Shown: positions 1 through 16,451 of the stretch, piece by piece | How the letters are laid out: each line of letters opens with the position of its first letter | How positions within the stretch are numbered: position 1 is the first letter of the stretch | DNA from: Chrysochromulina parva | Lineage: Eukaryota > Haptophyta > Prymnesiales > Chrysochromulinaceae | Length of the DNA: 16,451 bases | Reading direction: 5' to 3' | NCBI GenBank assembly: GCA_002887195.1 | Contig: PJAB01001192.1 | Location: 1-16,451 of the forward strand | Notes under the pieces: model-generated | What the model was told of the DNA's origin: nothing | What the model saw: the letters and a program-made list of their open reading frames with translations, nothing else | Databases searched by the model: none | Position numbers and translations under genes: made by a program

Positions 1-612
1 TCGCAACCAGCGTCGTAGGGCTCGCCCTCCTCCTCGCCCGCATCGCCCGCCTCGACCGCAATCCACGAGAGCACCTCGGGCGCCGCGTACTCGGGCGAGC
101 CGGCGACACCCGTCAGCTCTATGGGTGCGTCACCGCCGCCCAGAAGTGCCGCGTACCCAAAGTCGATGAGCGTCAGGTGCGGCCGCTCCGTCTCCTCATC
201 GCTCACCATGATGTTTTCGGGCTTCACGTCGCGGTGCACCACGCCGACCTCGGCGAGCGCCGTGAGCGCCGTGAGCAGCTGCTGCATCAGGTGGCGCACG
301 AAGCTGGTCTCGAGCGCGCCGCGCTCCTCCAGCACCATGAACAGCTCGCGGCCTGGCACGCGGTCCATGGCGAGATAGATGGCGTCGGGCGAGGCCACGA
401 CCTTGAGCAGCCGGACAATGTGCGGCGCATTGCCCGCGCGCTTCAGCGCCAGCACCTCCGCCTCGAGCATCTCGATGCCCTCCTCATCCTCCTCGATCGC
501 GCCCATGTCGAGCTCTTTGAGCGCGAGCACCTGCCCAGTCGCCTCATTCACGGCCGAATAGACCTTGGAGAAGCGGCCCTCGCCCAGCATGTCCTGCACG
601 GCGTAAAGGGTC
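1..612 (-). other. Ser/Thr protein kinase domain (CaMK-like), truncated by window edge
   Basis: This is the catalytic domain of the giant gene. The glycine loop reads GEGRFSKVY (codons 558-584). The ATP-binding lysine lies in ALKELD (codon 516-518), and a Glu-rich alpha-C follows. The catalytic loop is HRDVKPENIM (codons 207-236), the metal-binding motif DFGYA (Asp codon 162-164), and the activation segment ends GSPEYAAPEVL. Lys, both Asp residues and the APE motif are all present, so the domain should be active. The HRDVKPEN loop and GSPEYAAPE segment suggest the CaMK group. The sequence ends at ...YDAGC, just before the expected DxWSxGV of subdomain IX, so roughly the last third of the C-lobe lies outside the window. 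Confidence 0.92.
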
Positions 613-3600
613 GAGATGTCGGCCGCCGACGCGTCACAGAGCTTCTTGAGGGATGCCGATAGTTGAACCTCATCTGCGGCCTCGGCGGCCGCTAGTTCGG
701 CAGCCTCAGCCTCGGCCTGCGCAGCCTCGGCCTCAGCGGCCGCTAGCTCGGCAGCCTCAGCCTCGGCCTTGGCAGCCTCGGCCTCAGCGGCCGCTAGCTC
801 GGCAGCCTCAGCCTCGGCCTTGGCAGCCTCGGCCTCAGCGGCCGCTAGCTCGGCAGCCTCAGCCTCGGCCTTCTCAGCCTCGGCCTCAGCAGCCGCTAGC
901 TCGGCAGCCTCAGCCTCGGCCTTCTCAGCCTCGGCCTCAGCGGCCGCTAGCTCGGCAGCCTCAGCCTCGGCCTTAGCAGCCTCGGCCTCAGCGGCCGCTA
1001 GCTCGGCAGCCTCGGCCTCGGCCTGCCCAGCCTCGGCCTCAGCGGCCGCTAGCTCGGCAGCCTCGGCCTCGGCCTTGGCAGCCTCGGCCTCAGCGGCCGC
1101 TAGCTCGGCAGCCTCCGCCTCAGCCTGCTCAGCCTCGGCCTCAGCTGATGGCTCTTCAGCTGCTGGTTCCTCAGCGGCTGGCTCTTCAGCGACTGACTCA
1201 TCAGCGACTGGCTCTGCTGCGGCTGACTCACGTGCGGCTTCCTGTTCAGCCTGCACCGCTGGCACAGACACCTCAGCAGCAGGTTCCACTGACGGCGGAA
1301 CTACCGGCTCCTCAGCAGCAAGGGACTCAGCGGAACGCTCCACTTCCACCGACTCTTCGGCCGCTGGCTCTGCCGACGCCGGCTCCTCAGACACTGGCTC
1401 CGGCGCAGCCGGTTCTGATGCCGCCGACTCTTCCGCCCAAGGTACCGCTGCCGCCGGCTCCGTCTCGAACGACGCGCCAAAGCCAGATGCAGGCGGGAAT
1501 GCGGCTGCCTCTGGAGGCGTCTCGAATGAAGCGCCGAAGCCGGATGCAGGCGGGAATGCGGCTGTCGTCTCAAACGACGCGCCAAAGCCAGATGCAAGCG
1601 GGAATGCGGCTGTCGTCTCAAACGACGCGCCAAAGCCAGATGCAAGCGGGAATGCGGCTGCCTCTGGAGGCGTCTCAAACGAAGCGCCAAAGCCAGATGC
1701 AGGCGGGAATGCGGCTGTCGTCTCAAACGACGCGCCAAAGCCGGATGCAGGCGGGAATGCGGCTGCCTCTAGAGGCGTCTCGAATGAAGCGCCGAAGCCG
1801 GATGCAGGCGGGAATGCGGCTGCCTCTCCGAATGGAGACGATTCTCCACATGTTGCCGAGGACGCCGGTGCGTTGGCCACTGAGGCAGCTTCCGCAGGTT
1901 CTGCCGGCGTCATTTCCGCCGCCGCCGGCTCCGTTGCCGTCGACTCGTCGGGCTCATCGAAGGGGTCGTCGAGGAACGCTGAAGAGAAGGCTGAAGAGAA
2001 TGCCTCGCCTGCTCCGCCACCAGACAACGGTGTCTCGTGGTCGAACGAAGTTGAACCAAAGGCAAAGGTCCCTAACGGACTTTGACCGGGTGTGACGGAC
2101 AAGAAGTTGCCCTCCATGCCATCGCCACCATCCATGCCAAAGTCATCGTCGCCATCCATGGAAAATGCCGAGAATCCGGTTTTCAGCCTTGGCTTCGGAG
2201 GGTTGGGGGGCGTACTCGGCGCTGTCGTCTCTTGTGTCTCAGAGGCAAAGCTGACCTGATTAGGAGATTCATTGCCCAAACCATCGCTAGGAGCCCCATC
2301 GACAGCGTTCGTAGCTTCGGAACCAAACCCGCTGCTGAAAAAGGCAGGTGCTACGCTGAAGCTGCCACCGCTGCTGCCAAATGCAGGTGCATCGCTGAAG
2401 CCAGAGCCGCCCCCGAACCCGACAGCAGCCGCCTCAGTGACCACAGCAGCAGCCCCGTCGCCAAACCCGCTGCCGCTAAAGGCAGGTGCATCGCTGAAGC
2501 TTGCGCCAAAGCTGCCGGCGTCACCCGCTGGATCAAAGCTAGTAGAGAAGCGTTTGCTCAGCTGTGGAGACTCATTGTGCTCGCCGGCTCCAGACTTACT
2601 CGCAGCCTCGAAACTCGCACCAAAGCCAGCAATGACTTCTGCCTCAGCCTGTGCGGGCGAGCTAAAACTGGCCGCGAACCCAGCCGGCGTGTCGAAGCTC
2701 GCAACGAAGCCCGTCGTGGCGCTTGCTTCCGGCTGAGCCGGTGAGCTGAAGCTGGACTCAAACCCAGCGGGCGTGTCGAAGCTCGCACCGAAACCAGGTT
2801 TAGGGGCGCTTGCCTCTGGATGTGCGGGCGAGTTAAAGCTAGAATCGAACCCAGCCGGCGTGTCGAAGCCCGCACCGAAGCCCCCGGAACCGAAGGCGGC
2901 ATCACCTGAAATTGGCGGCATCCCACCATCCACAGCTTGAGTCGGCGTGGCCATCGTGAAGAGGTCGGCGTCGATTGCGCCGGCGGCAACGCCCATTGCG
3001 GGAGCCGGCGCAGGGGCAGGAGCGGGGGGGTCGGGGGGCATCGTGAAGAGGTCGGCGTCGATCGCGCCGGCGGCGACGCCCATTGCGGGAGCCGGCGCCG
3101 GCGCAGGATTGGAAACCTCGGGGGCGGGGGCGGGCGCCTGCGCGCTATTTACTACAGCGGCAGGCGAGCCAAAATTGGTGAAGTCGTCCTCGTCGTCGAC
3201 TCCTGACTCACCAGCGGGCAGCTCATCGTTCGTGGTGGCCTGAGGAGACAGGGGTCTCGGTGGACGCATCTGCTCAGTCGACGTCGATTCAGCTACGGCG
3301 CTGCTATTGCTGCCGTCACCATAGGCGACGCCGAAGCCATTGGATGCAGAAAAATTCGCTTCCCCCAAGCCGCCGCTAAAGCCCTGGGCGTCAGGAAAGC
3401 TGGTGCGAAAGCCTTGGCTCGTGTCGAAGCTACCGTTGCCACCGACGCTGCTGAAGCCGCCGCTGAAGACGGGTACATTGCCGTCCATTAAGCTAGAGCT
3501 GCCGGCTGTCGGAGTGGCGCCCAAGTCATTGCCACCGAAGCTGGTGCCAAAGCCATTGCCGTCGAAGCTTGATGTGAACGCGATGCTGGTGCCAAAGCCA

Positions 3601-6529
3601 TTGCCGTCGAAGCTTGGTGTGAATGAGCTACCGCCACTGGCACCGAATCCAGAAGATGTCATGCCCATCGCGGGGGATCCGAAGCCTGAGACGTCCATGC
3701 CCATCAAATCGCCCATCAGATCGGGCGGTGGCGGTGGCGGTGGCGGGGGCGTCGCAAGTATCCCGGGCGCTATCCCTGGCGCTGCTGGTGCGAAGTCAAA
3801 GTCCAGACCCCCGAACGGGTCAGCGAGCGCGGCCTCGAAGGCGGGGTCATGAACGCCTTCGGCCTCGTCCTCGTCCACGCCATCTCGAGGCGTCGGCGAG
3901 TTGCCGTACTCGCTGAGCGGAGTTGGAGGAGGTTCCCAACTCTGCTGCATGCCAGCCCCTGCCGGCGACCCTGGTGCGGCCTGGTGCAACAGCTCTGCCC
4001 AGTTGGGCCACTTCATCACATACGGCACGCCGTCGATCGGGCGCGGATGGCGCATGCGCGGGTATAGCCGCCGGCGTGCGCGGCCGACGGCGACCGCCTG
4101 CTGAATCTGGACGGTCGCGCTCTGGACGCGCTTGGCGGCGCTCTCCCACGGGCGCTTGAGCTTCTCAACCTCATGCGTGAGTGCGAAGTGAGCGTCCTCA
4201 TGCGTCACGACGAGTACCTCGGTTGGGTGAGTCTCGGCCGCGCCCATCAGGCGAGCGAGCTGCTCGAGACCAGTCGCCGTCAGCAGGTTCTCGTGCAGCA
4301 GCAGACACGCGGGAGCTTTCGGCCCCGCCAACAGCGCCGGAAGTGCTTCGAGCAGCCCGTCGCCCGCGTGGTGGCCCGAGACGTCGAGCACCTGATGAGG
4401 GAGGCCATCAGAGGTCGTTAGAGGCCAATAGAGGCCATTAGGGGCCATCAGGGGCCATTAGGGGGCATCAGAGGTCATTGGAGCACCTGGATAGGCGCGA
4501 CACACGACGCGATGCAGCCGAGCACCGAGGCGAGCTCGAGCTTTAGTCGAAGCGCGGGGCTACCGGCGAGCAGGAGCGTGTGCAGCCTTGGTGCGGCGCC
4601 CAACACAGTGGCCAGCCCAGCGATCAGCTTCTGCCTATCGCCCGAGCGCGGCGCCGCGTTCCTCCCGAGCCCGAGGCACGTGAGCTGCGGCGCGCTCTTG
4701 GTCAGCGCCTCACAAACTACAACGCTGAGGGCCGAGGCGTCGTCGCCTTTCGCGGCAGTGGCGCCGTGGCACGCATCGATGTAGAGGCCGGAGAGCTTGG
4801 TGCAGTGGGGTAGCGCTGTGCTGAGCAGCTGACCCCCTAAGGCGCCGAACGGGTTGGACGAAGCATCGAGGGTGAGCGCGTTCAGTCCGCGGTTGAGCTG
4901 CGCCGCCTGGAGGAGCGCCACGAGTGACTCGGGTGCGAGCGTGCAGCGCGCGAGCGAGAGCTCCACGAGCTGCACAGCCGTACGGGAGGAACGGGGGGAC
5001 GAGCAGCACGCGCGCGCGTGAGTGTGAGGACTGGAGGGAGTGACCACGCGATAAGTCACGCGACAAGTCTGGTCAGCTCGCAGGCGCAGTGTCGCGCGGC
5101 AACGCGCACTCGCACTCGCACTCGCACGCGCGTGCGTGCGCGCATCGGCGGGCGGGCGCACCGCCGTGCAGCCGCCTAGGAAGTGGAAGAGCGCCGCAAG
5201 GTCCGCGCGGCTCAGTTTGTTGCCGGACAGGTCCAGAATGCGAAGGGTGGCGCCGGCAGTTCCCTTCTGAAGCGTCTCTACGACGAGCTTGGCCGCGACA
5301 CCAGTCGAACGCAGATCGAGCTCCTCGAGCTTCACGGCGCGCTGGAGCATCTGGGCCAGTAAGGGCGTGCCGCGAGGCCCGATCTCATTGTCGGCGAGCC
5401 GGAGGATTTCGAGCGCCGAGCTCGCGTGCATCACACCTTGGGGTGATCGCCGGCCTTCGCACAGCGCCGCGATCAGCGGCTGCATTCCCTTGCTGCTCGC
5501 CTTGGCGTCGCTGATGTCGAGAAGCCGTAGCCCTTGCCTAAGGGCCTGCACGAGCTGGCTGATGGCAGTGACACCGCCGTCGCGCAGCTCATTGCCGCTC
5601 AGGTCGAGGTCGGTCAGTGGGAGCGTGCGCGCGGCGGCGCCTTCGGAGAGCGCATCGACGAAACTCTTTGCGGCGAGGCGGGCACGCACGTCCGAAGGCG
5701 CCGCCGGGAGGACGCCCGAGAGATGGACGACCGTTAAGGAATTCGAAGTGCGTGCGCACTCGCTGAGCGCACTGATCGCCTCGCCGATGGGCGCATCCAG
5801 CAGCCGAACGCCCGCAAACATGGACGTGTGCCGCAGCGCCACCGCCGCCGCCGCGAAGTCGGCGGCAGTGAGCTCGGCAATGAAGGTGAGGTCGAGGATG
5901 CGGTCGCGGCGGGCGGGCCGCGAAATGAGCTGCGCCATGAAGGCAGCGAGACGCTCGCGACGCGCCTTGGCATCGCTCGGCGAAGGCGCCGCACCGCTAC
6001 GGCCGCTCGCCGGGTCGACTGAATACGAGTGCACGGCGAGCCAAGTGCGCGAGAAGCCCATGTCGATCACCTTGTCGTCCATGTCGAAGCCGATCGACTT
6101 CCACTCCCGGGGCAGCGAGAGCGCGAGGGGCGGTACGTCGAGGCAGAGGGTGATCGACCCATATGCGTGCAGCGTCGCGTGAGCCGCGTCCTGTAGCCGC
6201 GGCGATTTGATCTGGACTGTGGCACCCTCGCCGAAGCCCCACGCGCCCATGTCACCCTGGCATGTCATGCCGCGCAATTCGAGCAGGTGGAGGTCTTTGA
6301 AGGCGACTCCGAGGCCGAGCGGCTTCCAGCGCACGAGCACAAGCCGGTAGCGGCTCACCAACACCAGGCGGTCGGTGCCAGAGGCAAGTTTCGTACCTGA
6401 GCACGCGAACAGGGCCTCATCGCCGCGCTCGGTGAGGTATGAGAGAGCCTGCTGCGCCTTCTCGACCGTGCAGCCGGCTGCCGTGGCGATCGAGTGCGCG
6501 CCGAGGGCTTTGAACTCTCTGCGGGGCAT
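1..6529 (-). CDS. Giant CARMIL-like PH-LRR protein with FG/SF repeats and C-terminal Ser/Thr kinase (three exons, 3' partial)
   Basis: The exons I infer are 6529-5162, 4969-4487 and 4391-1, giving at least 2080 residues, open at the left edge. Residues about 35-140 look like the CARMIL PH domain (RLVLVSRYRLVLVRW, then a LHLLELRG strand). Residues about 260-680 are leucine-rich repeats such as LTDLDLSGNELRDGG and LRILDLSGNKLSRADL, and the LRR pattern is continuous across both splice junctions. Then come a linker, nine consecutive prolines (codons 3723-3749), DPF motifs, Phe/Gly/Ser repeats, nine Ala/Glu repeats and a kinase domain (residues about 1880 onward). The start is the first in-frame ATG; the frame is open upstream to 6676, but only from a GTG. 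Binding of lipid, actin-capping or membrane partners is inferred from family resemblance only. I scanned exon 3 codon by codon and found no in-frame stop. An alternative is two genes, an LRR gene and a kinase gene, but the 4392-4486 junction argues against it. Confidence 0.8.
689..1148 (-). repeat. Nine-copy 51-bp minisatellite coding Ala/Glu helical repeats
   Basis: Nine tandem units of 51 bp lie in frame in the giant gene just N-terminal to the kinase. The unit translates as LAAAEAEAAKAEAEAAE with small changes at the Lys/Gln position. It is strongly helix-forming and acidic, and could act as a rigid spacer or coiled coil. The units are nearly identical at DNA level, including the embedded GCGGCCGCTAGCTCGGCAGC-type stretch, so copy number is probably variable and recently expanded. 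Confidence 0.9.
1461..1834 (-). repeat. Seven-copy FPPASGFGASFET repeat
   Basis: Seven in-frame copies lie at residues about 1470-1594 of the giant protein. Two unit lengths alternate: 16 residues (…SFETTAAFPPASGFGA) and 19 residues (…SFETPPEAAAFPPASGFGA). The copies are nearly identical at DNA level. The composition (Phe, Gly, Ser, Ala, Pro) resembles FG-type intrinsically disordered repeats. Confidence 0.9.
2560..2893 (-). repeat. Three diverged 28-residue GFGASFDTPAGF repeats
   Basis: Three in-frame units of about 84 bp encode GFGASFDTPAGFESSFSSPA followed by a QPEASA-like tail; a fourth partial unit lies towards 2570. They are more diverged than the seven-copy block and lie upstream of it in the protein. 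Each unit carries regularly spaced Phe residues (GF, SF, GF, SF). Confidence 0.8.
2952..3098 (-). repeat. Direct duplication of a 60-bp coding segment (87-bp period)
   Basis: The 60 bp at 2952-3011 recur at 3039-3098 with two mismatches. The encoded peptide is AGAMGVAAGAIDADLFTM-like, preceded by Pro-Ala alternation. The 87-bp offset equals 29 codons, so the giant gene's frame is kept. Confidence 0.8.
4392..4486 (-). other. Intron 2 of the PH-LRR-kinase gene (95 nt, tandem-repeat intron)
   Basis: The donor is ATCCAG|GTGCTCC and the acceptor CTCATCAG|GTGCTCGAC, both phase 0. It joins two frames (95 is not a multiple of 3) and restores the repeat APIQ|VLDVSGHHAGDGLLEAL. The interior is seven 10-bp units of consensus CCYCTRATGG at 4405-4474. 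Unit 6 contains CTAAC, about 26 nt before the acceptor AG and well placed as a branch point. The 9-mer CAGGTGCTC occurs at both exon-intron boundaries. Unspliced, the LRR frame would stop at 4475-4477. Confidence 0.85.
4970..5161 (-). other. Intron 1 of the PH-LRR-kinase gene (192 nt, stopless, in frame)
   Basis: On the minus strand the donor is ACGGCG|GTGCGC and the acceptor is a pyrimidine-rich stretch ending GGCTGTGCAG|CTCGTG. Both boundaries are phase 0. Removing it restores a normal leucine-rich repeat, GGCTA|LVELSLARC. The unspliced sequence would instead insert 64 His/Arg/Ser/Ala-rich residues into the repeat. The interior contains a short run of GCGAGT-like hexamers (about 5104-5130), typical of non-coding low-complexity DNA. 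Confidence 0.8.
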
Positions 6530-11729: not shown

Positions 11730-13463
11730 TCACTCAAACGCACTGAGGTCGTCGTCGTCGCCAAAGACCATGTCGTCGTCGTCGTCGCCGGTGTCCTCGG
11801 GGAATGCGCCATGCTCGCGGAGGTAGGCGAAGGCGGCTGCCATGGCAGTATCCTTGTCCTTGATCGCATATTTGCCAGCCTCCGGGTTCGAGACGACAAC
11901 CGCCTCGGCAAAGTGACCGCCGTGCGGGCACTCAAAGGGCTTGCCCTCGTTGATAAACTGGGGCGGCGCGTCCGACTTCGGATTGGTGACGGTGCCGTCG
12001 ACAGCTGCGCACACCGCTTGGATCCAAGCGGTCACGTCCACCTTCGAGGACGACTTGTTCGACTCTGGCTTGGGGACGTAGGCGACGATGGCGAGCTGCG
12101 CGGTGCCCGCCGAGAAGATCATCTTGCCAACAAAGCCCGAGCAACCCTTGCGCTCCTCGGCAAGCGGGTCGGGGTCTGCATTCATCGCCTGCATTGCCGT
12201 GAGCAGCAGCGCCTGGTCCCCCTCGGGCGACTCGATGGTCGTGCAAAAGAAGTCGAGGCCGCCCATCTCGGCGGCACCCTCGATCTCAACTCCCTTCTTG
12301 CCGCCCTCCTTGATGACCGTCTTGAGCAGCTTCTCCTTCGCCTTCGCGGCCTCCTTGGCTGCCTTATCATCAGCCGACGGCTCCACCTTGACCTCTTTGG
12401 GTTTCTCCTCCTTGGGTTTAGCGGCCTTCTCGGCCTTCATCTTCTCAATCTCCTCGGGCGAGGGTTTGCCGTCCTTCTTCTCTGCCGCGGGCGCCCCCTT
12501 CTCATTGGGCATCGCAGCCTCCTTAGCAACCTTCGGGGGCGCCGCCGCTGCCTCCGACGCGCTCGCTTTCGAGCCTTCGGCAGCGGCCTTCTCGCACTCA
12601 GCGAGAGCAGTCTTCGCGGGCATCACGGTGAGCGTCTGCCCACCGTTCCACGAGGCGTTCGGCACCAGGACGACTGGCTTGCCGATAGCCGCAGCCTCGA
12701 GGCAAATGTAATTCTTCCACTCGTCCGAACCCAGGTCAGCGAGCGTGCTCGCTTTTGCCTCGCCGATGTTCCACACGACTGCGTCCGGGAAGCCCATCTT
12801 GAGCATCCGGATGGAGCGCTCGCCCTCGACCACGTAGAGTGAGCGCGGCGTCTCCCAATAGATGCGGTCCACCTCGCCCTTGAGAGCGAGCGGCGCGCCG
12901 TCCTGCACCGCCGCCTCAACGCCGGCTACCGAATCGTCATACTTGAGGCCTGAAAGGCCGTGCACCGTCACGCCGCCCATATCAGCGCACGCCAAGTAGG
13001 TGTGCAGTGCCGTCGTGAACTCGATGGGTTGATCCCCGCTATTCATCACCGCGAGTGACATCGATAGCGACGCGTCAGAGTCGAGCGTCACCGAGTAGCG
13101 CAGCTTGAAGGCGAACGGCCAAAGCTCCTTGGTGGCGGGCGAGTCCGTCAGGCCGAGAACGACGCAAGGGTACGGCTCTGTCGAGGTGCGTACGACAGTC
13201 CACTCCGCCGAATTGCGGCAGAACCCGTGTTTCTGGTACGCGCCGCGCGCTGCAAACTGTGGAAAGCAGACGGGCACGCCACCACGGATAGCCTTGCCAT
13301 CGCCGAACACGGTCTTGGATGAGACGAACATATTCTCGTGGCCATCGGCCGATTTCCACGAGGCGACATGAGCGGCATAAACGTACACCGTTGCTGTAGA
13401 CCCACTGGGGTGAGTGAGCTTCACCGCAGGGAGCCCATTCAGAGTGATGTGCTCGACGCTCAT
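11730..13463 (-). CDS. Glucose-6-phosphate 1-epimerase (hexose-6-phosphate mutarotase) fused to an uncharacterised C-terminal domain
   Basis: The protein has 577 residues from ATG 13463 (MSVEHITL). The frame is open 38 codons further upstream, but only from a GTG. Residues about 1-282 match the YeaD/YMR099C-type aldose-epimerase family, which interconverts alpha and beta glucose 6-phosphate. Visible motifs are IRGGVPVCFPQF (59-70), QKHGFCR (77-83), LHTYL with candidate catalytic His154, and ICLEA with candidate base Glu256; the domain ends at GGQTLTV. A Lys/Glu/Ala/Pro-rich linker follows (about 283-388). The C-terminal domain (about 389-560: GVEIEGAAEMGGLDFF, GKMIFSAGTAQLAIVAYVP) is not one I can name, though I have the impression of similar stand-alone protist proteins. 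The tail is strongly acidic (GDDDDDMVFGDDDD). There is no clear targeting peptide from this start, so it is probably cytosolic. Confidence 0.85.
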   Translation of the reverse strand: MSVEHITLNGLPAVKLTHPSGSTATVYVYAAHVASWKSADGHENMFVSSKTVFGDGKAIRGGVPVCFPQFAARGAYQKHGFCRNSAEWTVVRTSTEPYPCVVLGLTDSPATKELWPFAFKLRYSVTLDSDASLSMSLAVMNSGDQPIEFTTALHTYLACADMGGVTVHGLSGLKYDDSVAGVEAAVQDGAPLALKGEVDRIYWETPRSLYVVEGERSIRMLKMGFPDAVVWNIGEAKASTLADLGSDEWKNYICLEAAAIGKPVVLVPNASWNGGQTLTVMPAKTALAECEKAAAEGSKASASEAAAAPPKVAKEAAMPNEKGAPAAEKKDGKPSPEEIEKMKAEKAAKPKEEKPKEVKVEPSADDKAAKEAAKAKEKLLKTVIKEGGKKGVEIEGAAEMGGLDFFCTTIESPEGDQALLLTAMQAMNADPDPLAEERKGCSGFVGKMIFSAGTAQLAIVAYVPKPESNKSSSKVDVTAWIQAVCAAVDGTVTNPKSDAPPQFINEGKPFECPHGGHFAEAVVVSNPEAGKYAIKDKDTAMAAAFAYLREHGAFPEDTGDDDDDMVFGDDDDLSAFE

Positions 13464-13600
13464 ACGATTGTAGGAACGTGGCCGTGTGAACAGGCTGTTA
13501 ATACTCGCGCAAGGAGGAGTTGAGGAGGGCGTGGGTTTCCAGTTGGATAGATTTCTTCGGAATTTCCTGTGATTCACGCATTTGAATGCCTATCATCGCC

Positions 13601-16155: not shown

Positions 16156-16451
16156 CCGACCGCGCGTCTCGTCTCGCGAGTGAACAGGGAAACGCCTGTG
16201 CACCGAGCGGCCGGCCGTCAATCGAGCCCAGCCCCATGGACAAGTCTAAGTCAAGAAAATCAAATTCCCGCGTTCAAAAAGTCAAGTCAAGTCAAGTCAA
16301 GTCAAGTCAAGTCAAGTCAAGTCAAGTCAAGTCAAGTCAAGTCAAGTCAAGTCAAGTCAAGTCAAGTCAAGTCAAGTCAAGTGATTCAAAATGGCGGTCG
16401 CCTTTCCGCCGCCTTTGGTGCCCATCGCTGGCGCGAGCGATCGGGAGGGCA
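16156..16451. other. Upstream region of the Cys-rich gene with possible short plus-strand reading frame
   Basis: ATG at 16236 on the plus strand opens a frame through the GTCAA repeat to the window end (72 codons). It reads MDKSKSRKSNSRVQK, then tandem VKSSQ, then an Arg/Trp/Pro-rich segment. The 5-bp unit keeps any frame open, so this is weak evidence for a gene. Otherwise the segment holds the 5' flank of the Cys-rich gene. Confidence 0.25.
16281..16380. repeat. (GTCAA)20 pentanucleotide microsatellite
   Basis: Twenty perfect, uninterrupted GTCAA units (TTGAC on the other strand) lie about 125-225 bp upstream of the ATG at 16155. Related partial units (GTCTAAGTCAAG) begin near 16243. The perfect purity implies recent expansion or high turnover. 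Confidence 0.98.

What the first reader, a model, noticed from the sequence alone, without database searches (positions are those of the whole stretch)
1..6529. One protein joining a CARMIL-like PH-LRR front end to a predicted active protein kinase
The sequence shows an LRR reading frame ending at 4475 and, in another frame, an unbroken frame from 4457 to the left edge. Splicing 4392-4486 joins them with the LRR rhythm intact on both sides. The product has a PH-like domain, about 420 residues of LRR, a poly-Pro run, DPF motifs, Phe-rich repeats, an Ala/Glu helix and a CaMK-like kinase. CARMIL proteins combine PH, LRR and Pro-rich parts and act on actin capping and Arp2/3-myosin I. I know of none that ends in a kinase. 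This could be a membrane- and actin-linked signalling scaffold with its own kinase.
Basis: partly seen in the sequence, partly recalled or inferred. Interest (0 to 1): 0.78.

Follow-up and report, generated by a model that had tools for sequence, protein, structure and literature searches.

The report
Algal CARMIL-like scaffold with embedded kinase
A haptophyte alga carries one long gene whose protein starts like an actin-regulating scaffold (CARMIL) and, judging from close relatives, holds a complete and probably active protein kinase inside its disordered tail; the join looks real in sequence, but no transcript was tested, no capping-protein-binding motif was found and the job of the protein is unknown.

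Summary
The window is one whole contig of a genome very close to Chrysochromulina tobinii. Removing 4392-4486 and 4970-5161 joins a PH-like/LRR front end to a frame that runs into a kinase at the contig edge. The annotated C. tobinii protein P0014 has exactly these junctions. Three close relatives (P0003-P0005) keep LRR end and kinase in one predicted protein and continue past the kinase into a Phe-rich tail, so the kinase is embedded, not terminal. CARMIL1 ranks first in sequence and fold searches, though ribonuclease inhibitors come close on the LRR. Pfam Carm_PH is not hit and no capping-protein-interaction motif exceeds chance: CARMIL-like, not shown to be CARMIL. The kinase is one of four similar copies in this genome, two of them inside larger frames. 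The published gene model stops before the kinase, and no transcripts were available. By-product: intron 1 belongs to a genome-wide family of minisatellite introns, part of which show long target duplications.

The parts
5162..6529 (-). exon 1, residues 1-456: N-terminal helices, PH-like domain, first LRRs
6140..6424 (-). PH-like domain, about residues 36-130 (predicted strands within 39-81, then helix 110-130)
   Evidence: low model confidence; no Pfam Carm_PH hit
4970..5161 (-). intron 2 (192 nt, GT-AG; frame-neutral in the window and P0015, frame-breaking in P0016/P0017)
4487..4969 (-). exon 2, residues 457-617: middle LRRs
4392..4486 (-). intron 1 (95 nt, GT-AG): 10-nt tandem array between two copies of GAGCACCTG; member of a genome-wide intron family
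3..4391 (-). exon 3, residues 618-2080, open at the contig edge: last LRRs, basic helix, disordered tail, kinase
4143..5914 (-). LRR region, about residues 206-700 (spans both introns)
3813..3821 (-). DPF motif 1, residues 808-810
3723..3749 (-). run of nine prolines, residues 832-840
1959..1967 (-). DPF motif 2, residues 1426-1428
1467..2795 (-). stretch holding the nine GFGASF repeats, residues 1150-1592
668..1148 (-). Ala/Glu repeat stretch (edges approximate); copy number varies between relatives
3..662 (-). protein kinase domain, N-terminal part, from residue 1861; P-loop, ALKE, HRDVKPEN, DFG and GSPEYAAPE present; cut by the contig end
3686..3808 (-). stretch left out of the published C. 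tobinii model P0014 as if a 123-nt in-frame intron (contested)
3240..3282 (-). stretch left out of P0014 as if a 43-nt frame-shifting intron, which ends that model 28 residues later (contested)

Best explanation
One nuclear gene of a Chrysochromulina-like alga encodes a multidomain cortical scaffold with a built-in Ser/Thr kinase. SHOWN by sequence: a PH-like plus LRR front end in CARMIL order, then a long low-complexity Pro/Phe-rich tail, an Ala/Glu stretch, a CaMK-like kinase domain and, in close relatives, more Phe-rich repeats, all in one frame once two introns are removed. INFERRED: the PH-like and LRR parts place the protein at membranes or cortical actin. The Phe-rich/DPF tail collects trafficking partners; a more distant relative carries an EH domain in that tail. 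The tethered kinase phosphorylates what the scaffold gathers. The kinase looks like a late arrival: the distant relative P0001 lacks it, and the genome holds three other similar copies in other protein contexts.
Confidence: 0.6

Rival explanations
1. Two products from one locus: a PH-LRR protein ending in the tail, as annotated in C. tobinii (P0014), and a separate downstream kinase gene, or the kinase only in a rare isoform.
For: The published model P0014 stops 28 residues after a 43-nt intron, before the kinase; that annotation used RNA-seq among other evidence (PMC4580454, passages). Kinase copies elsewhere in the genome look stand-alone: C265 and C1701 frames.
Against: A 43-nt intron would be far shorter than the other two (95 and 192 nt). 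In P0003-P0005 the same stretch is read through in frame, two residues shorter. Beyond it the frame stays open for over 1,000 codons in the window, and P0003-P0005 continue likewise as proteins. No in-frame Met lies just upstream of the kinase. P0001 runs as one predicted protein from the LRR into a comparable Ala/Glu and Phe-rich tail.
Confidence: 0.17
2. An LRR scaffold not specifically related to CARMIL: the LRR is of the common ribonuclease-inhibitor type, the N-terminal domain is some other small beta domain, and CARMIL is merely the best of many similar LRRs.
For: No Carm_PH hit; no CPI motif; ribonuclease inhibitors score nearly as high on the LRR.
Against: CARMIL is first in three rankings, and only the CARMIL rows align from the N-terminal helices through the LRR in order (2 of 50 rows). 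The N-terminal 214 residues folded alone rank CARMIL chains 2nd and 3rd behind another PH domain.
Confidence: 0.2
3. The join is an assembly artefact.
For: Repeat-rich region; the contig ends inside the kinase.
Against: P0003-P0005, predicted from three other contigs (17,146, 8,703 and 11,511 bases), show the same order.
Confidence: 0.03

Closest known systems
CARMIL1 (LRRC16A), PDB 4k17 and 9ec0
   Same: Order PH-like, LRR, then long tail; first by sequence and fold
   Different: No CPI motif above chance; only two short helices modelled after the LRR; carries a kinase and Phe-rich repeats
Dictyostelium CARMIL-GAP
   Same: CARMIL-type front end plus a catalytic domain inserted in the tail (PMC9270954, passages)
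   Different: The enzyme is a RhoGAP domain, not a kinase, and it keeps a functional CPI domain
CaMK1D and other CaMK-group kinases
   Same: Best solved relatives of the kinase domain
   Different: The stretch after the kinase in P0005 looks acidic, without an obvious basic calmodulin-binding helix (by eye); embedded in a scaffold
P0001, unnamed ENA protein of 1714 residues
   Same: PH-LRR 54% identical, Ala/Glu stretch, Phe-rich repeats
   Different: Has an EH domain and no kinase hit
Introners of Chrysochromulina sp. (for intron 1)
   Same: Dispersed introns with target duplications in the same genus name (PMC9860276, passages)
   Different: There: 4-bp duplications, 5' splice site carried by the element. 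Here: tandem-array body, conserved 3' end, longer and variable duplications

Membership tests
CARMIL | PH-like domain at the N terminus | tested here: inconclusive
CARMIL | LRR domain after the PH-like domain | tested here: met
CARMIL | helical homodimerisation domain | tested here: inconclusive
   Only helices 680-693 and 698-723 are modelled after the LRR, then pLDDT below 50 from 721 on
CARMIL | proline-rich region | tested here: met
   One run of nine Pro and 16 PxxP in the window protein; weak as a criterion
CARMIL | capping-protein-interaction (CPI) motif | tested here: not met
   Best score 3 of 7 fixed positions in the window protein, P0005, P0001 and P0002; reached by 200, 198, 200 and 199 of 200 shuffles. 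The consensus used is recalled; a diverged motif could be missed, as the motif tolerates divergence (PMC6249002, passages)
Protein kinase, likely active | P-loop, catalytic Lys, HRD, DFG, APE | tested here: met
   full domain in P0005; activity itself not testable
CaMK group | closest relatives are CaMK-group kinases | tested here: met
   Best of the 60 PDB rows shown (of 1809): CaMK1D, then calcium-dependent protein kinase 2 and AMPK; no tree made
CaMK group | calmodulin-binding autoinhibitory segment | not tested
   Only looked at by eye in P0005
ROCO/LRRK kinases | Roc GTPase and COR between LRR and kinase | tested here: not met
   No such Pfam hit at E<=1 in P0005, which covers LRR end to C terminus
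Introner-type introns (intron 1) | many similar introns dispersed in the genome | tested here: met
   264 exact copies of the 3' end against 0 for the reversed pattern; splicing itself not tested except through P0014
Introner-type introns (intron 1) | target duplication | tested here: met
   Window: exact 9-bp repeat at both edges. Family: 6 of 27 arrays with 9 bp or more against 4 of 688; 9 of 21 against 3 of 420; the remaining arrays show none

The most novel reading that the evidence does not exclude
A CARMIL-derived scaffold in prymnesiophyte algae has changed role from capping-protein regulator to trafficking/cortical signalling hub: the CPI motif is gone, and the Phe-rich tail carries exchangeable catalytic or adaptor modules (an EH domain in one lineage, a CaMK-like kinase in another). 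The kinase module is a recently copied cassette that has also entered other proteins of the same genome.
Probability: 0.35. Interest if true: 0.68.

Novelty: new variant of a known kind. Interest (0 to 1): 0.52.

Why it matters
A CARMIL-type scaffold with its own kinase would put actin/membrane placement and phosphorylation in one polypeptide, a second case of an enzyme built into a CARMIL-type protein after CARMIL-GAP. It also points to a kinase cassette spreading into other proteins of an algal genome, and it supplies a gene in which a probably recently gained minisatellite intron can be studied.

Tried and rejected
Rfam (gathering thresholds) and tRNA scans of the window: nothing. Carm_PH search of the genome: no candidate, and no control rang, so uninformative. 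CapZ-alpha search: no candidate, uninformative for the same reason. A second PH-LRR gene in the genome: the next match after the gene itself is a generic LRR hit, 2.6e-11, 31% (lower bound). The contig that continues the kinase: the C-terminal kinase hits are paralogs at 68-73% identity (C265, C289, C1701), none the continuation. Idea that the kinase inserted with a host duplication at its edges: a 194-bp, 96% duplication lies on both sides of the kinase in C289 but does not abut it, and the protein comparisons in P0003-P0005 are dominated by low-complexity matches; not claimed. A first array script used a wrong pattern and was replaced. The exact-repeat test on the second intron sample (9 bp or more in 9 of 21 against 26 of 420 cross pairs) was spoilt by matches to another element's own acceptor, such as L086; one search leaves out GT sites directly after CATCAG and is the one I use. 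An earlier count said that P0001 has no introns and that P0014 stops 27 residues after the 43-nt junction; the first was not seen and the second is 28.

Literature searches: C. tobin genome, 76 papers, 15 listed; introner with haptophyte, 6; introner with Chrysochromulina, 2, one of them looked at by passages, PMC4815162 not opened; CARMIL, leucine-rich repeat, kinase domain, protist, at least 3 of 4, 86 papers, none of the 15 listed holds the word CARMIL; intron gain with minisatellite and target site duplication, 0; CARMIL with Dictyostelium and others, 6, listing only; CARMIL with haptophyt, 0; CARMIL with CPI motif and others, 3, all looked at by passages. The library is incomplete, so this is no proof of absence.
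Full report
WHAT THE WINDOW IS. The window is the whole of contig C1192 (16,451 bases) of a 45-Mb genome in 2,199 contigs. Its PH-LRR protein is 99% identical to P0014, 'leucine-rich repeat-containing protein [Chrysochromulina tobinii]', so the organism is that species or a very close one. The published C. tobin genome has 63.4% GC and on average a single intron per gene (PMC4580454, passages).

THE JOIN AT SEQUENCE LEVEL. Two GT-AG introns, 4970-5161 and 4392-4486, leave 2,080 codons open to the contig edge. P0014 carries the same two junctions letter for letter. P0001 and P0002, 54% and 49% identical in the alignment, are continuous over the same region: no gap at the intron 2 junction, and 4 and 5 extra residues three residues before the intron 1 junction. 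They are predicted proteins; I did not see their DNA and do not know whether they have introns. Intron 2 has no stop in the window, but P0016 and P0017 change reading and end inside it. P0015, a cluster of 35 sequences, reads through intron 2 as the window does and ends inside intron 1, as a prokaryotic gene caller would leave it (the reason is inferred). P0003-P0005 start exactly after intron 1, with M where the window has V (GTG), and run through the whole kinase.

IT DOES NOT END IN THE KINASE. P0003, P0004 and P0005 have a full kinase domain followed by an acidic linker and more GFGASF/GFGTSF repeats to their ends. Between LRR and kinase they differ from the window by 12, 13 and 12 indel events, all of whole residues in the protein alignment. 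Several lie in codon-based repeats, and the three proteins are very alike, so this is about one independent comparison, not three. Identity is 77/83 for the last LRRs in all three, 592/656, 577/655 and 593/656 for the Phe-rich part, and 207/215, 203/215 and 206/215 for the kinase.

THE PUBLISHED MODEL DISAGREES BEYOND THE LRR. P0014 leaves out 3808-3686 (123 nt, in frame) and 3282-3240 (43 nt, frame-shifting) and stops 28 residues later. That annotation came from MAKER2, combining RNA-seq, homology and three ab initio predictors (PMC4580454, passages), so I cannot tell whether the 43-nt junction has read support. I take it for a prediction error or a minor isoform, because the frame it abandons stays open in the window and is continued through the kinase in P0003-P0005. 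Only transcripts can settle it.

THE KINASE. It is a CaMK-like Ser/Thr kinase with GEGRFSKV, ALKE, HRDVKPEN, DFG and GSPEYAAPE. The genome has at least 26 matches at E<=1e-15, the window included; three others stand out, C265 81%, C1701 81% and C289 79%, the next being 51%. dN/dS is 0.25-0.36 and dS 0.29-0.39 in the six pairs of these four. C265 and C1701 look stand-alone; C289 is embedded in an open frame of over 2,600 codons rich in coiled-coil-like repeats. In the protein database 46 proteins passed 1e-20 among 7,994 scored candidates, among them kinases with long tails (P0030-P0032) and a C. tobinii protein named Rab3 GTPase-activating protein catalytic subunit with a 47% identical kinase (P0058). 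The module therefore seems to move between proteins in this lineage. P0001 has no kinase hit and has an EH domain, so I infer that the kinase joined after the two lineages split; loss in P0001 is not excluded.

HOW IT MAY WORK. Shown: the anatomy. Inferred: PH-like and LRR parts for placement, tail for gathering partners, kinase for local phosphorylation. Capping protein beta and ARPC2 are encoded in the genome, so part of the machinery that a CARMIL would serve exists. The EH domain of P0001, two FxDxF in P0001 and two DPF in the window protein point weakly to endocytosis. CARMIL-GAP of Dictyostelium, with a GAP domain inserted between its dimerisation and Pro domains and a role in phagocytosis (PMC9270954, passages), is the nearest precedent for an enzyme inside such a protein.

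INTRON 1 IS A SEPARATE SURPRISE. It is an array of 10-nt units between two copies of GAGCACCTG. A 26-base pattern of the unit, one mismatch allowed, has 898 (partly overlapping) matches in the genome against 0 for the pattern read backwards. Its 3' end, GATGRCCTCCCTCATCAGG, has 264 exact copies against 0. First sample: 20 loci cut around places among the first 100 listed, plus the window; 27 arrays were scored, some in the same locus, and one at a locus edge was dropped. A direct repeat of 9 bp or more straddling GT/AG was found in 6 of 27 (9, 11, 14, 17, 26, 29 bp; the 9 is the window), against 4 of 688 cross-locus pairs. Second sample: 20 of the first 100 acceptors listed, chosen by me from the GATGGCC form and avoiding listed tandem clusters, plus the window. 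The first 16 exon bases recur at an upstream GT with at least 13 of 16 identities in 9 of 21, against 3 of 420 cross-locus pairs. The window is not among these 9: its exact repeat at the exon side is short, and its best score there is 10 of 16. So roughly half or more of the arrays show no clear duplication. I infer that the element brings the acceptor and the duplicated target brings the donor. Variable, often long duplications differ from the 3-9 bp reported for some introner families and from the 4-bp duplication and carried 5' splice site of a Chrysochromulina sp. introner (PMC9860276, passages; its supplements were not seen, so this family may be in its lists). Splicing of these introns is inferred from sequence, except for intron 1, whose removal is annotated in P0014.

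On re-reading I corrected the distance to the stop in P0014 (28, not 27), the lengths after the kinase, the claim that P0001 is unspliced (not seen), the gap near junction 1 and the near tie with ribonuclease inhibitors. None of these changes the odds given.

Noticed in passing
window 4392-4486; L057-L076, L079-L098: Intron 1 belongs to a genome-wide family of minisatellite introns with a conserved 3' end, part of which show long, variable target duplications: an introner-like family that may deserve its own study.
   Followed up: partly
L039 (C289), L040 (C1701), L041 (C265): Three further copies of the kinase module, 79-81% identical, in other protein contexts; the C289 copy sits inside an open frame of over 2,600 codons.
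   Followed up: partly
P0001 residues 1113-1200: A relative of the PH-LRR protein carries an EH domain, a combination with a CARMIL-like front end that I do not know from elsewhere (recall; EH hit).
   Followed up: no
P0058: A C. tobinii protein named Rab3 GTPase-activating protein catalytic subunit contains a kinase 47% identical to this one over 60% of the query.
   Followed up: no
window 11730-13589, minus strand: An aldose-1-epimerase domain (7.2e-38, residues 55-319) followed by about 300 residues without a Pfam hit at E<=1, ending in an acidic DDDDDMVFGDDDD tail.
   Followed up: no
window about 16290-16390: Short tandem repeat of 5-base AAGTC-type units near the contig end (seen in the translations).
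   Followed up: no
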